Below, piece by piece: positions 15,502 through 17,746 of a stretch of 64,000 bases of DNA (the first letter of the stretch is position 1; every line of letters begins with the position of its first letter). A program made the translations under genes and the position numbers. The notes under the pieces are model-generated. The model had not been told where the DNA came from, searched no databases, and was given only the letters and a program-made list of their open reading frames with translations. The DNA comes from Methylomonas fluvii (GTDB lineage: Bacteria; Pseudomonadota; Gammaproteobacteria; Methylococcales; Methylomonadaceae), in the NCBI RefSeq assembly GCF_014850975.1, contig NZ_JACXST010000002.1:1240001-1304000 (forward strand), in the 5' to 3' direction.

Positions 15502-15524
15502 CCATGTAGATACCGTCTTAAAAG

Positions 15525-16511
15525 TCAACTGTGGAGAGCGTAATCGACCCGGTAAGGCTCACGAGTTTTCAAGACGCCAAAGCACAAATGCACGAGTTTG
15601 CGCATGGCGCCACCGAGAGCCGACATTTTTGATTTACCGCGTGCTTGCAAGCGCAAATAGAGTGCTTTGAGGTGCGGATTGTATTGAACGCCGACTACGG
15701 CAGCCATATAGAGGATGGCCCGCATACGGGCCGGCCCGGCTTTGGATAGTCTGGGTCGCCCTTGAATCGACGAACCGGACTGTCGCTCCACGGGCACCAA
15801 CCCCAGGTAAGCGGCCAGTTGTTCGGCGGATTGAAAGCGATGATTGTGCATGACCGCTAACAAGTGATTGCTAACCTGGGGACCGACGCCGGGAATACTG
15901 ATTAACAGCATCCGGTCCGCTTTCAGTTCAGGGTACTGATCGATATGGTCGTCGATGTCGATCTGGAGTTTAGCGAGTTGTGCTTCCAGGAAGGTAATAG
16001 AGTCGAGCAAGGACTGGTGAATCAGTGCCGGGGTATCGGTGGCCTGGGCTTTTTCGAGGCGGTTGCGCTCACGTTGCAAATCCTGGGCAATCGCTTCGCG
16101 GCGGGATAGCAGGGCTTGCAACGTGCGAGCTTCTGGGGTTGGAGGTGTCCAAGGCTTGGGATTCAACAACGCGCCGTAACGGGCCAACACCAGGCTATCA
16201 ACGCCGTCGGTTTTGGTGCGCACACCCAGGCTGCGGCCAAAATCCTTGACCTGTGCCGGGTTCACGATAGACACCGTTACCCCTGCATCCGCTAAGGCTA
16301 AGGCGGCCTGCTCGTGGTAAACGCCCGTGCCTTCGAGAATGGCATGCAATTCTTGTGGACACACGCGTTGTTTGGCGCACCAAGTCAGCAGATCGTCGAA
16401 GCCCGTTTTGGAATTGGCAACGGATTTGGCGCGACGTTTATTGATGCAGGTGTCCAGCAACAGACTACAGTCGAGCTTGGCTTTAGAGACATCGATACCG
16501 ATAAAAAACAT
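15525..16511 (-). CDS. IS110-family DEDD transposase/recombinase
   Basis: 328 residues from the chosen start, MFFIGIDVSK, which is the conserved family N-terminus; the frame is open 15 codons further but those residues are not typical. The RuvC-like acidic set is complete: Asp7, Glu60 in ILEGTGVY, and Asp102/Asp105 in TKTDGVDSLVLA. The C-terminal domain begins at MLLISIPGVGP (about 201) and has RQSGSS (Ser245-248), where the family's catalytic Ser lies. IS110 recombinases use an RNA-guided (bridge RNA) mechanism to join donor and target. The gene looks intact, so the element may be active. Confidence 0.93.
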   Translation of the reverse strand: MFFIGIDVSKAKLDCSLLLDTCINKRRAKSVANSKTGFDDLLTWCAKQRVCPQELHAILEGTGVYHEQAALALADAGVTVSIVNPAQVKDFGRSLGVRTKTDGVDSLVLARYGALLNPKPWTPPTPEARTLQALLSRREAIAQDLQRERNRLEKAQATDTPALIHQSLLDSITFLEAQLAKLQIDIDDHIDQYPELKADRMLLISIPGVGPQVSNHLLAVMHNHRFQSAEQLAAYLGLVPVERQSGSSIQGRPRLSKAGPARMRAILYMAAVVGVQYNPHLKALYLRLQARGKSKMSALGGAMRKLVHLCFGVLKTREPYRVDYALHS

Positions 16512-16572
16512 AAGGCAACTCAGTGTGAAGAAACAAAATAAACCAACTGAGCCCACTTGCCTTGTGCATGCA

Positions 16573-16728
16573 GGGTCATTGCCCTTGGCTACCGTTCAGT
16601 GTCTTCGTTGGCGTCAGAAGTGAGACAGAAGGCTTAATCTACATGCCAAGGTCGAACCTTAAGGGTACGCACAAGCTCTTTCTGTCTCAGTGCCAAGGTA
16701 GCTAACCATGGCGAGAAGTAAGATACAA
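16573..16728 (-). ncRNA. candidate IS110 bridge-RNA unit, copy 1 of a 156-bp tandem duplication
   Basis: This lies 61 bases upstream of the transposase start. It holds nested inverted repeats: an outer pair 16585-16593/16697-16705 and an inner perfect 10-bp pair, TGAGACAGAA at 16621-16630 with TTCTGTCTCA at 16680-16689, leaving a 49-base loop. Size, place and folding suit the bridge RNA of IS110 elements. The unit is repeated exactly in the next 156 bases. The RNA itself is not proven. Confidence 0.5.
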
Positions 16729-16884
16729 GGGTCATTGCCCTTGGCTACCGTTCAGTGTCTTCGTTGGCGTCAGAAGTGAGACAGAAGGCTTAATCTACAT
16801 GCCAAGGTCGAACCTTAAGGGTACGCACAAGCTCTTTCTGTCTCAGTGCCAAGGTAGCTAACCATGGCGAGAAGTAAGATACAA
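16729..16884 (-). ncRNA. candidate IS110 bridge-RNA unit, copy 2 of the tandem duplication
   Basis: Identical base for base, as far as I can read it, to 16573-16728, including both inverted repeat pairs. It is the outer copy, abutting the flanking DNA. Its loop contains AAGGGTACGCAC (16817-16828), also found right after the unit at 16883-16894. Confidence 0.5.
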
Positions 16885-16885
16885 G

Positions 16886-16902
16886 GGTACGCACCGCGTA
16901 CC
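16886..16902. repeat. short palindrome GGTACGC-ACC-GCGTACC, copy 1
   Basis: A perfect 7-bp stem with a 3-base loop. The same stem with loop GAT recurs at 16937-16953. It sits exactly at the outer edge of the IS110 non-coding end. Confidence 0.6.
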
Positions 16903-16936
16903 TTATTTGAACTTGAGTTATATCCAAAAACTGAAA

Positions 16937-16953
16937 GGTACGCGATGCGTACC
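16937..16953. repeat. short palindrome GGTACGC-GAT-GCGTACC, copy 2
   Basis: It has the same 7-bp arms as the palindrome 51 bases to its left, with a different 3-base loop. Both are flanked by purine-rich AAGG on the left, suggesting a small repeat family separate from the REPs. Confidence 0.6.
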
Positions 16954-16970
16954 CTACCTCTCAATTAACA

Positions 16971-17061: not shown

Positions 17062-17124
17062 TATTTTGGACTGTTGCGAATAATGACAACGCGGGGGTTC
17101 AATGCGATAACCTTCGCTAAATAG

Positions 17125-17150
17125 GATGTGCCGACGCCAGGAGGCGCATC
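17125..17150 (+). repeat. REP hairpin just downstream of the RAYT gene
   Basis: The arms GATGTGCC and GGCGCATC (one G-T pair) enclose a 10-base loop. It ends 7 bases beyond the RAYT stop codon. The inverted copy at 17709-17734 matches it at 24 of 26 bases, both differences being in the loop. Confidence 0.75.
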
Positions 17151-17157
17151 TGTCGAG

Positions 17158-17688
17158 TTACTCGATGCCTTTAATATCAAGCGCTTCGCTCTTCCCCCAA
17201 TTTTCTTCATAAACACCCTGTTTCACAAAACGGTGGAAGCTTGAATATTGCCAATCGATTACGTTTTTTACATGGCCGTGCTTTACCGGATTCCAATGAA
17301 TATAATCGACATGGCGATTGTAATCATCCTGGTCTTCGATCAAATGCGCCCACAACCGGCGTTGCCAAATACCTCGTTCGCGGCGTTTTTGACGGCTTTT
17401 TGAAATTCGTTCTCCATGGTCAATTGACCTGGAAAACCGTCCTTTCAACATATTCCATCTGACAGAGAAATCACCGTCATCGGGCGGCAATGTCCAAATA
17501 CAATGCAAATGATCAGGCATGATGACGATGGCATCAATATGAAAAGGTTTGCGTTGTTTTACATAGCGAAAGACATTTCGCAATTCATCAATCTTATCAA
17601 TCAGCAGTTGATTGTTTTTCCGCTCCTCAAGATTGACGGTGAAAAACCACATGGCGTTGGGTATGTAAAATCGGCGGTATTCTGTCAT
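17158..17688 (-). CDS. REP-associated tyrosine transposase (RAYT)
   Basis: 176 residues of the Y1_Tnp/HUH single-strand nuclease type. The HUH motif is MPDHLHCIW (His60 and His62) and the catalytic tyrosine is Tyr129 in DYIHWNPVKHG, the family signature. RAYTs act on REP hairpins and probably spread them round the genome. Here REP units lie within 10 bases of the stop and about 20 bases of the start, in opposite orientation, as expected for a REPtron. No clear Shine-Dalgarno site is seen before the ATG. The gene seems intact. Confidence 0.92.
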   Translation of the reverse strand: MTEYRRFYIPNAMWFFTVNLEERKNNQLLIDKIDELRNVFRYVKQRKPFHIDAIVIMPDHLHCIWTLPPDDGDFSVRWNMLKGRFSRSIDHGERISKSRQKRRERGIWQRRLWAHLIEDQDDYNRHVDYIHWNPVKHGHVKNVIDWQYSSFHRFVKQGVYEENWGKSEALDIKGIE

Positions 17689-17708
17689 GGCGTAATTGTT
17701 ACACTATC

Positions 17709-17734
17709 GATGCGCCTCCTATCGTCGGCACATC
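17709..17734 (-). repeat. REP hairpin just upstream of the RAYT gene, inverted copy
   Basis: This is the reverse complement of the REP at 17125-17150 apart from two loop bases. Together they bracket the transposase gene. Confidence 0.75.
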
Positions 17735-17746
17735 CTATAGGCTAAG

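What the first reader, a model, noticed from the sequence alone, without database searches (positions are those of the whole stretch)
16573..16884. IS110 element with a perfect tandem duplication of its probable bridge-RNA region
Two exact 156-bp copies lie just upstream of an intact IS110 transposase. Each has nested inverted repeats (outer 16585-16593/16697-16705; inner 10 bp 16621-16630/16680-16689), the size and place expected of the bridge RNA in IS110 elements. Doubling could raise RNA dose or allow one copy to change its guide loops.
Basis: partly seen in the sequence, partly recalled or inferred. Interest (0 to 1): 0.72.

Follow-up and report, generated by a model that had tools for sequence, protein, structure and literature searches.

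The report
Half-duplicated guide RNA in insertion sequence
A jumping gene of a known RNA-guided kind carries an exact side-by-side copy of the front part of its guide RNA gene; the extra copy keeps the part that finds the landing site but lacks half of the part that grips the element, and its edges suggest that the element recombined with itself.

Summary
The repeat is real: two identical 156-bp units, 16572-16727 and 16728-16883, in the leader of an intact IS110-group transposase gene. The leader does encode a bridge RNA: 24 aligned leaders share a 5' stem-loop, target-binding loop (TBL) and donor-binding loop (DBL), and in 22 elements the predicted target guides match the element's own flanks (left 126/154, right 83/110 bases; shuffled means 67.7 and 45.7).

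But the unit is not a whole bridge RNA. It stops inside the DBL; the right donor guide and DBL 3' arm exist once, in the downstream copy only. So there is one complete bridge RNA plus an upstream copy with an intact TBL and half a DBL. The promoter rebuilt in the circle lies before the upstream copy.

A second IS copy in the same genome is otherwise identical and has one unit. Among 68 TBL matches in 237 genomes of the family, this is the only adjacent pair.

Both edges fall on ACC-CT, CT being the recombination core, and one edge is the exact IS end. Best explanation: bridge-RNA-guided self-targeting of the leader; microhomology slippage remains a rival. Function of the extra TBL is untested.

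The parts
15508..16885 (-). IS110-group insertion sequence with its CT cores at both ends; 1376 bp counting one core (1220 bp in the single-unit copy)
   Evidence: ends fixed by comparison with the second copy on C1 and by relatives; element from the inner left end to the right end identical in the two copies, 1222 bp with both cores
15525..16511 (-). DEDD transposase/recombinase, 328 aa
   Evidence: PF01548, PF02371, NF033542; ISCro4 9t56 E=2e-62, IS621 8wt6 E=5.9e-59
16728..16883 (-). upstream 156-bp unit: LE start, -10, 5' stem-loop, complete TBL, left donor guide, DBL apex; no right donor guide and no DBL 3' arm
16572..16727 (-). downstream 156-bp unit, identical to the upstream one, first part of the complete bridge RNA
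16540..16713 (-). complete bridge RNA (approximate ends; transcript start inferred from the -10 box)
   Evidence: consensus structure of 24 leaders; single-sequence fold
16777..16845 (-). upstream TBL
   Evidence: model R1 match 16775-16869, 100.7 bits
16621..16689 (-). downstream TBL (contains left target guide GTGCGTACC-CT at 16662-16672 and right target guide GGCATGT-AG at 16639-16647)
   Evidence: model R1 match 16619-16713, 100.7 bits; guide/flank match
16588..16595 (-). left donor guide ACGGTAGC (second copy at 16744-16751)
   Evidence: by eye against the RE end ACGGTATC
16561..16569 (-). right donor guide ATGCACAAG, one copy only; pairs discontiguously with CT-TGTAT, as described for IS621
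   Evidence: scheme from PMC11208158 passages; pairing by eye
16543..16547 (-). 3' arm (GTTGG) of the DBL closing helix, one copy only
16728..16732 (-). duplication junction ACC-CT: end of upstream unit fused to an inner copy of the IS left end (GACC-CT-TGTATC)
16572..16576 (-). original internal site ACC-CT followed by GCATGC, the inferred self-target
   Evidence: joint third of 137 CT sites in the element by guide match
16884..16904 (-). left flank: half of a GGTACGC palindromic repeat, the IS target (core CT at 16884-16885)
15523..15528 (-). -35 box TTGACT at the right end; with the left end it makes TTGACT-17-TATCTT in the circle
   Evidence: the same layout in 22 of 22 elements

Best explanation
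This is an IS110-group element (IS621-like) whose leader encodes one complete bridge RNA, preceded by a recent exact copy of the 5' part of that RNA gene: left end, 5' stem-loop, complete target-binding loop and the left half of the donor-binding loop. The extra copy most likely arose through the element's own RNA-guided recombination. A circular copy used the CT inside the DBL apex of its own (or a sister copy's) leader as an off-target. Either the two direct repeats of about 1.06 kb in that nested insertion then recombined, leaving LE-unit-CT-LE-unit-transposase-RE, or the CT sites were exchanged directly. Shown: anatomy, bridge RNA identity, truncation of the extra copy, recency, rarity among the relatives examined. 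Inferred: the route. Expected working: in the circle one promoter drives a longer transcript, in which the downstream copy supplies target and donor loops and the upstream copy a spare target loop of the same specificity. The inner left end is complete, so the IS may also excise from it as a one-unit circle and leave the spare unit behind. The net effect on transposition is probably small or mildly negative.
For: Exact tandem. The second copy in the same genome is identical from left end to right end and has one unit, so the doubling is recent. Guides match own flanks: 126/154 and 83/110 over 22 elements, shuffled means 67.7 and 45.7, no shuffle of 10,000 reaching either. Structure: 17 of 40 pairs with compensatory changes, 0/500 shuffles reach this. 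One edge of the unit is exactly the CT core plus LE of the IS, the other an internal ACC-CT. Only 5 of 319 microhomology pairs of 5 bp or more (30-400 bp apart) cover the left core and none the right one, and among the 5 a 10-bp pair at distance 66 would be the better slippage site. The internal site scores 7 of 12 with the target guides, joint third of 137 CT sites in the element, behind two places where a guide meets its own gene; 69 of 6115 CT sites in the window score 7 or more. Its right side fits the right target guide at 4 of 5, 5 of 5 with one G-U. Right donor guide and DBL 3' arm occur once. Promoter with -35 at 4-5 of 6 and spacer 17 rebuilt in 22 of 22 circles; at its place in the chromosome the inner LE has 2/6 at -35.
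Against: The left target guide fits the internal site at only 3 of 7, and those three are the bases of the microhomology. No nested intermediate was found: the RE-into-leader junction has one match in 237 genomes, with two mismatches (G051), and it lies in sequence without an IS leader. The LE-into-leader junction is in this genome only. The 5-bp microhomology also suits slippage. The DBL rests on conservation: 1 of its 17 pairs has a change on both sides, against 16 of 23 in the 5' stem-loop and TBL, so the claim that the RNA continues past the unit leans on conserved sequence, the fold and the IS621 scheme; the minimum-energy fold of the two-unit RNA is a cross-copy one. No RNA or activity data.
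Confidence: 0.62

Rival explanations
1. Ordinary slipped-strand or illegitimate duplication at the 5-bp microhomology ACCCT, unrelated to the recombinase; the coincidence with the IS end is luck.
For: The edges share exactly 5 bp. Tandem duplications at short repeats are common in bacteria (general knowledge). 319 such pairs lie 30-400 bp apart in the element with 7-bp flanks (312 without flanks), so a chance duplication has many places to start.
Against: 5 of the 319 cover the left core. A 10-bp repeat, GCGTACCCTT at distance 66, also covers that core and was not the one used. The other edge is a CT whose right side also fits the right target guide.
Confidence: 0.3
2. Assembly error; there is one unit in the cell.
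For: The IS has two otherwise identical copies in the genome, and reads were not available.
Against: The genome has 4 contigs for 5.59 Mb and 99.99% completeness. Short-read assembly tends to collapse exact tandems rather than create them (general knowledge). The junction occurs once in this genome, allowing two mismatches, and is not the circle junction GGTAT-CT-TGTATC, so neither a circle nor a mix of the two copies would produce it.
Confidence: 0.06
3. The doubling is a selected adaptation: two target loops per transcript raise activity or let one loop drift to a new target while the other keeps the old one.
For: The upstream TBL is complete and scores as high as the downstream one (100.7 bits each). 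In IS621 the TBL and DBL of one synaptic complex are thought to come from two bridge RNA molecules, and separate TBL and DBL RNAs work in vitro (PMC11208158, passages), so a TBL without a DBL could be used.
Against: The copies are identical, the state is found once among 68 TBL matches, and the long RNA is predicted to mispair between copies: TBL stem probability falls from 0.90 to 0.61, and the 5' stem-loop from 0.99 to 0.32 with 0.67 for the cross-copy pairing.
Confidence: 0.1

Closest known systems
IS621 and the IS110 group with bridge RNA (Durrant et al. 2024, PMC11208160: abstract, section 12 and passages; Hiraizumi et al. 2024, PMC11208158: passages)
   Same: DEDD transposase of similar length; CT core; bridge RNA in the left end before the gene; 5' stem-loop, TBL, DBL; left and right guides reading both target strands; discontiguous right donor guide; promoter rebuilt across the RE-LE junction; insertion in REP-like palindromes (IS621 in REP: PMC1525189 passages)
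   Different: Leader carries a second, truncated copy of the RNA gene (TBL complete, DBL half). The word 'tandem' does not occur in PMC11208160, nor 'tandem', 'duplicat' or 'truncated' in PMC11208158.
ISCro4 recombinase (PDB 9t56)
   Same: best sequence match among solved structures, E=2e-62
   Different: its RNA was not compared here
IS110-family elements that insert in REP sequences: ISPpu9, ISPpu10, ISPa11 (PMC1525189, abstract lines and passages)
   Same: insertion into a fixed point of a genomic palindromic repeat
   Different: other palindromes and other hosts; their leaders were not examined
seekRNA of IS110/IS1111 (Siddiquee et al. 2024, PMC11187229, passages)
   Same: non-coding region mainly upstream of the gene in the IS110 type, guides to both target strands
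   Different: no duplicated guide RNA region in the 12 passages shown; 'tandem' and 'two copies' 0 hits

Membership tests
IS110 group with bridge RNA | DEDD N-terminal domain plus Transposase_20 C-terminal domain | tested here: met
   PF01548 81.5 bits, PF02371 87.2 bits, NF033542 213 bits, all above cut-off
IS110 group with bridge RNA | Long non-coding region upstream of the gene (IS110) and not downstream (IS1111) | tested here: met
   about 216 bp before the ATG in the single-unit copy, 15 bp between stop and core at the other end
[quoted passage not shown]
   24 sequences, 40 pairs, 17 with compensatory change, 96.9% of cells paired, 0/500 shuffles; the DBL has 1 such pair of 17
IS110 group with bridge RNA | Target guides match the flanks of each element | tested here: met
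   126/154 left, 83/110 right over 22 of 28 elements (6 had no right end in the locus); p about 1e-4 by 10,000 shuffles, optimistic because elements are related
IS110 group with bridge RNA | Donor guides match the element ends | tested here: inconclusive
   by eye: left guide ACGGTAGC to ACGGTATC (7 of 8), right guide ATGCACAAG to CTTGTAT with two unpaired bases; the donor hardly varies, so no covariation test was possible
IS110 group with bridge RNA | Sigma-70 promoter formed across the RE-LE junction of the circle | tested here: met
   22 of 22 elements, -35 4-5 of 6, spacer 17; in place in the chromosome 0-4 of 6; consensus match only
IS110 group with bridge RNA | RNA binds the recombinase and directs recombination | not testable with these tools
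   needs the bench
Full tandem bridge RNA (two complete RNAs) | Both copies carry both loops with all four guides | tested here: not met
   right donor guide and DBL 3' arm occur once
Rfam RNA family | Match at the gathering score | tested here: not met
   0 matches in the window; it was not checked whether Rfam 15 holds an IS110 bridge RNA family

The most novel reading that the evidence does not exclude
A natural TBL-TBL-DBL transcript: a bridge RNA that carries two target-binding loops for one donor-binding loop, made by the element's own recombination at its CT core. Because target and donor loops can act from separate molecules, such a step would be a route by which bridge RNAs gain a second, freely drifting target specificity without losing the first, an early form of a guide array.
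Probability: 0.14. Interest if true: 0.72.

Novelty: new variant of a known kind. Interest (0 to 1): 0.4.

Why it matters
How IS110 bridge RNAs change target is, as far as I know, open. A spare target loop beside an intact RNA is the kind of intermediate from which a new specificity could come, and this case gives its exact sequence and a single-unit sister copy in the same genome as control. It also suggests that bridge recombinases can attack their own RNA genes, which bears on the off-target behaviour of a genome-engineering tool. If the upstream loop is inert, it is a one-off rearrangement of small interest.

Tried and rejected
Rejected: 'two full bridge RNAs' (right donor guide and DBL 3' arm are single). 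'Gain of a second promoter' (inner -35 has 2/6). 'General feature of this IS lineage': a scan for exact direct repeats of 25 nt or more within 600 bp, in the gene with 700 bp before and 500 bp after it, found 1 of 60 distinct IS110 loci, this one. That would miss diverged repeats, so a covariance model of 5' stem-loop plus TBL was run: 68 matches in 33 of 237 genomes, one adjacent pair (at most 17 candidates per genome were scored, so some matches may be lost).

Led nowhere: Rfam; IMG/VR for relatives of the protein (11 pattern matches, none a relative); E. coli genomes by DNA similarity (no match), so IS621 itself was not compared at RNA level; plasmid records with a related protein (3384 of 72,556) were listed but not fetched; nested-insertion junction (one two-mismatch match in G051, in sequence without an IS leader). 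Two other matches to the LE-into-leader junction, in G075 and G030, have two mismatches and the same letters; the one read (L072) lies in sequence without an IS leader, the other was not read.

Rows dropped: the structure alignment used 24 of the 27 non-identical leaders (L034, L061, L066 left out). From the guide test, 6 of 28 leaders had no right end in the locus (L015, L017, L034, L063, L066, L067). Before both, I left out loci that looked like the same place fetched twice, N-masked flanks (L049, L050), a cut leader (L045), and loci with a partial leader or no gene. Three rows read one base out of register (L034, L048, L058) were kept uncorrected; two of them (L048, L058) are among the 22.

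Full report
Observation. The window holds two identical 156-bp copies side by side, 16572-16727 and 16728-16883. They lie upstream of an intact 328-aa transposase on the minus strand, 15525-16511, which matches both IS110 Pfam domains and NCBIfam 'IS110 family RNA-guided transposase' above cut-off. Its two matches among solved structures are ISCro4 (9t56, E=2e-62) and IS621 (8wt6, E=5.9e-59).

Ends and sister copy. The same genome has a second copy on contig C1 with one unit, identical from left to right end. Comparing the two, and the relatives, fixes the ends: left flank ..GCGTACC-CT-TGTATCTT.. and right end ..GACGGTAT-CT-AC.., with CT as core. The single-unit element is 1220 bp counting one core (1222 with both). 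Both copies sit in the palindrome AAGGTACGC-N3-GCGTACC-CT-AC. The pattern GGTACGCNNNGCGTACCCTAC occurs 30 times in this genome with at most one mismatch, and 0 times when read backwards. Insertion into palindromic repeats is known for IS110-family elements (PMC1525189, abstract lines and passages).

Bridge RNA. A set of 24 distinct leaders, of 27 at hand, was aligned. The consensus has a 5' stem-loop, a TBL and a DBL. 17 of 40 pairs show compensatory change, and no shuffle of 500 reached any of the five measures. 16 of the 17 are in the first two stems (23 pairs); the DBL (17 pairs) is held by conservation, with 1 such pair. That is what one expects when the donor does not vary, but it is weaker evidence. 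In 22 of 28 elements, those with both flanks, the seven bases before CT in the first loop match the element's left flank at 126 of 154 positions, and the five after it, read from the right guide, match the right flank at 83 of 110. Shuffled partners give means of 67.7 and 45.7 and do not reach the observed values in 10,000 trials. Relatedness among elements makes the p-value optimistic. For the window copy the matches are 7/7 and 5/5; for the C1 copy 7/7 and 3/5. The donor guides follow the IS621 scheme (PMC11208158, passages), by eye: left guide ACGGTAGC against ACGGTATC, right guide ATGCACAAG against CTTGTAT with two unpaired bases. In the relatives whose right guide differs (L025, L027, L057) the changes fall at the two bases expected to be unpaired and at the one next to them. 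A sigma-70-like promoter, TTGACT-17-TATCTT here, is rebuilt at the RE-LE junction in 22 of 22 elements, with 4 or 5 of 6 at -35. The 5' stem-loop plus TBL model also matches IS110 loci with 38-57% protein identity (for example L076, L078, L079, L086).

What is doubled. The unit runs from the left end to the CT in the apex of the DBL. It holds the -10 box, 5' stem-loop, TBL with both target guides, and left donor guide. The right donor guide (16561-16569) and the 3' arm of the DBL (16543-16547) are outside and single. The upstream copy therefore cannot make a DBL of its own: the only available 3' arm pairs with the upstream 5' arm at 0.01 and with the downstream one at 0.97. The predicted long RNA also lets the two copies mispair, and its minimum-energy fold is a cross-copy one: the proper TBL stems fall from 0.90 to 0.61, with 0.29 for a cross-copy stem, and the 5' stem-loops from 0.99 to 0.32, with 0.67 cross-copy. 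At its place the inner left end has no good -35 (2/6), so the complete RNA would be made as part of a longer transcript, unless processed.

How common. Of 60 distinct IS110 loci in hand, one has such a repeat. The model gives 68 matches in 33 of 237 genomes of the family, and the only pair within a few hundred bases is the one in the window. The fused junction is found in this genome only; matches with two mismatches in G075 and G030 share the same letters, and the one read has no IS leader.

Origin. The junction reads GACC-CT-TGTATC, where the normal left flank reads TACC-CT-TGTATC and the internal site GACC-CT-GCATGC. So one edge is the exact end of the IS and the other a CT. Scored with the element's own target guides, the internal site has 7 of 12, joint third of 137 CT sites in the element, behind only two places where a guide meets its own gene; 69 of 6115 CT sites in the window do as well or better. 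The left half of that score (3 of 7) is the same as the microhomology and so cannot separate the models; the right half (4 of 5, or 5 of 5 with a G-U pair) is independent but modest. Of 319 pairs of identical stretches of 5 bp or more, 30-400 bp apart, 5 cover the left core and 0 the right core, and a 10-bp pair at distance 66 would have been the better slippage site there. I judge self-targeting followed by recombination of the direct repeats, or direct exchange, at about two to one over slippage. The nested intermediate's other junction was not found.

Working. Published work on IS621 suggests that TBL and DBL of one complex come from two RNA molecules, and found that separate TBL and DBL RNAs work in vitro (PMC11208158, passages). 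So the spare TBL might act with a DBL from another molecule. Identity of the copies says this has not happened yet. I expect little or slightly reduced activity.

Known or new. The searches 'IS110 + tandem + bridge RNA' from 2024 on (6 papers, listing only), 'target-binding loop + donor-binding loop' (9 papers, listing only), 'bridge RNA + IS110 + IS621' (4 papers) and the passages showed no report of a duplicated bridge RNA region. A wider search listed 30 of 273 papers; in all I opened four papers (PMC11208160, PMC11208158, PMC11187229, PMC1525189), none read whole. This covers open-access PMC papers only.

Host. Three genomes that the search places in its family (G029, G065, G052) hold leaders and left flanks letter for letter like named records of Methylobacter sp. 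BlB1, Candidatus Methylobacter oryzae and Methylomicrobium sp. RS1, so the host is probably a methanotroph relative; this is inference.

Noticed in passing
17158-17688 (-), with 17121-17161 and 17698-17738: A REP-associated tyrosine transposase (NF047646, 194.8 bits) flanked by its own inverted repeats, of a different type from the GGTACGC palindromes that the IS110 element targets.
   Followed up: partly
16884-16957: The IS sits in one half of an inverted pair of GGTACGC palindromes; such pairs, 32-55 bp from start to start, recur in the genome.
   Followed up: partly
L023, L024, L036 (leader at about 1500 in each): Leaders with 5' stem-loop and TBL but no transposase match and no DBL motif found, on contigs that continue into other DNA; L024 and L036 are two similar copies in one genome. 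They may be relics or TBL-only pieces.
   Followed up: partly
L061, right of the IS end: The right flank reads like the 3' part of another IS110 transposase gene, so insertion into or next to a relative may occur (read by eye).
   Followed up: no
window 16756-16847 (+), also L015, L016, L044, L034: Weak antisense matches to the TBL model (E 0.009-0.037), as expected of a near-palindromic stem-loop.
   Followed up: no
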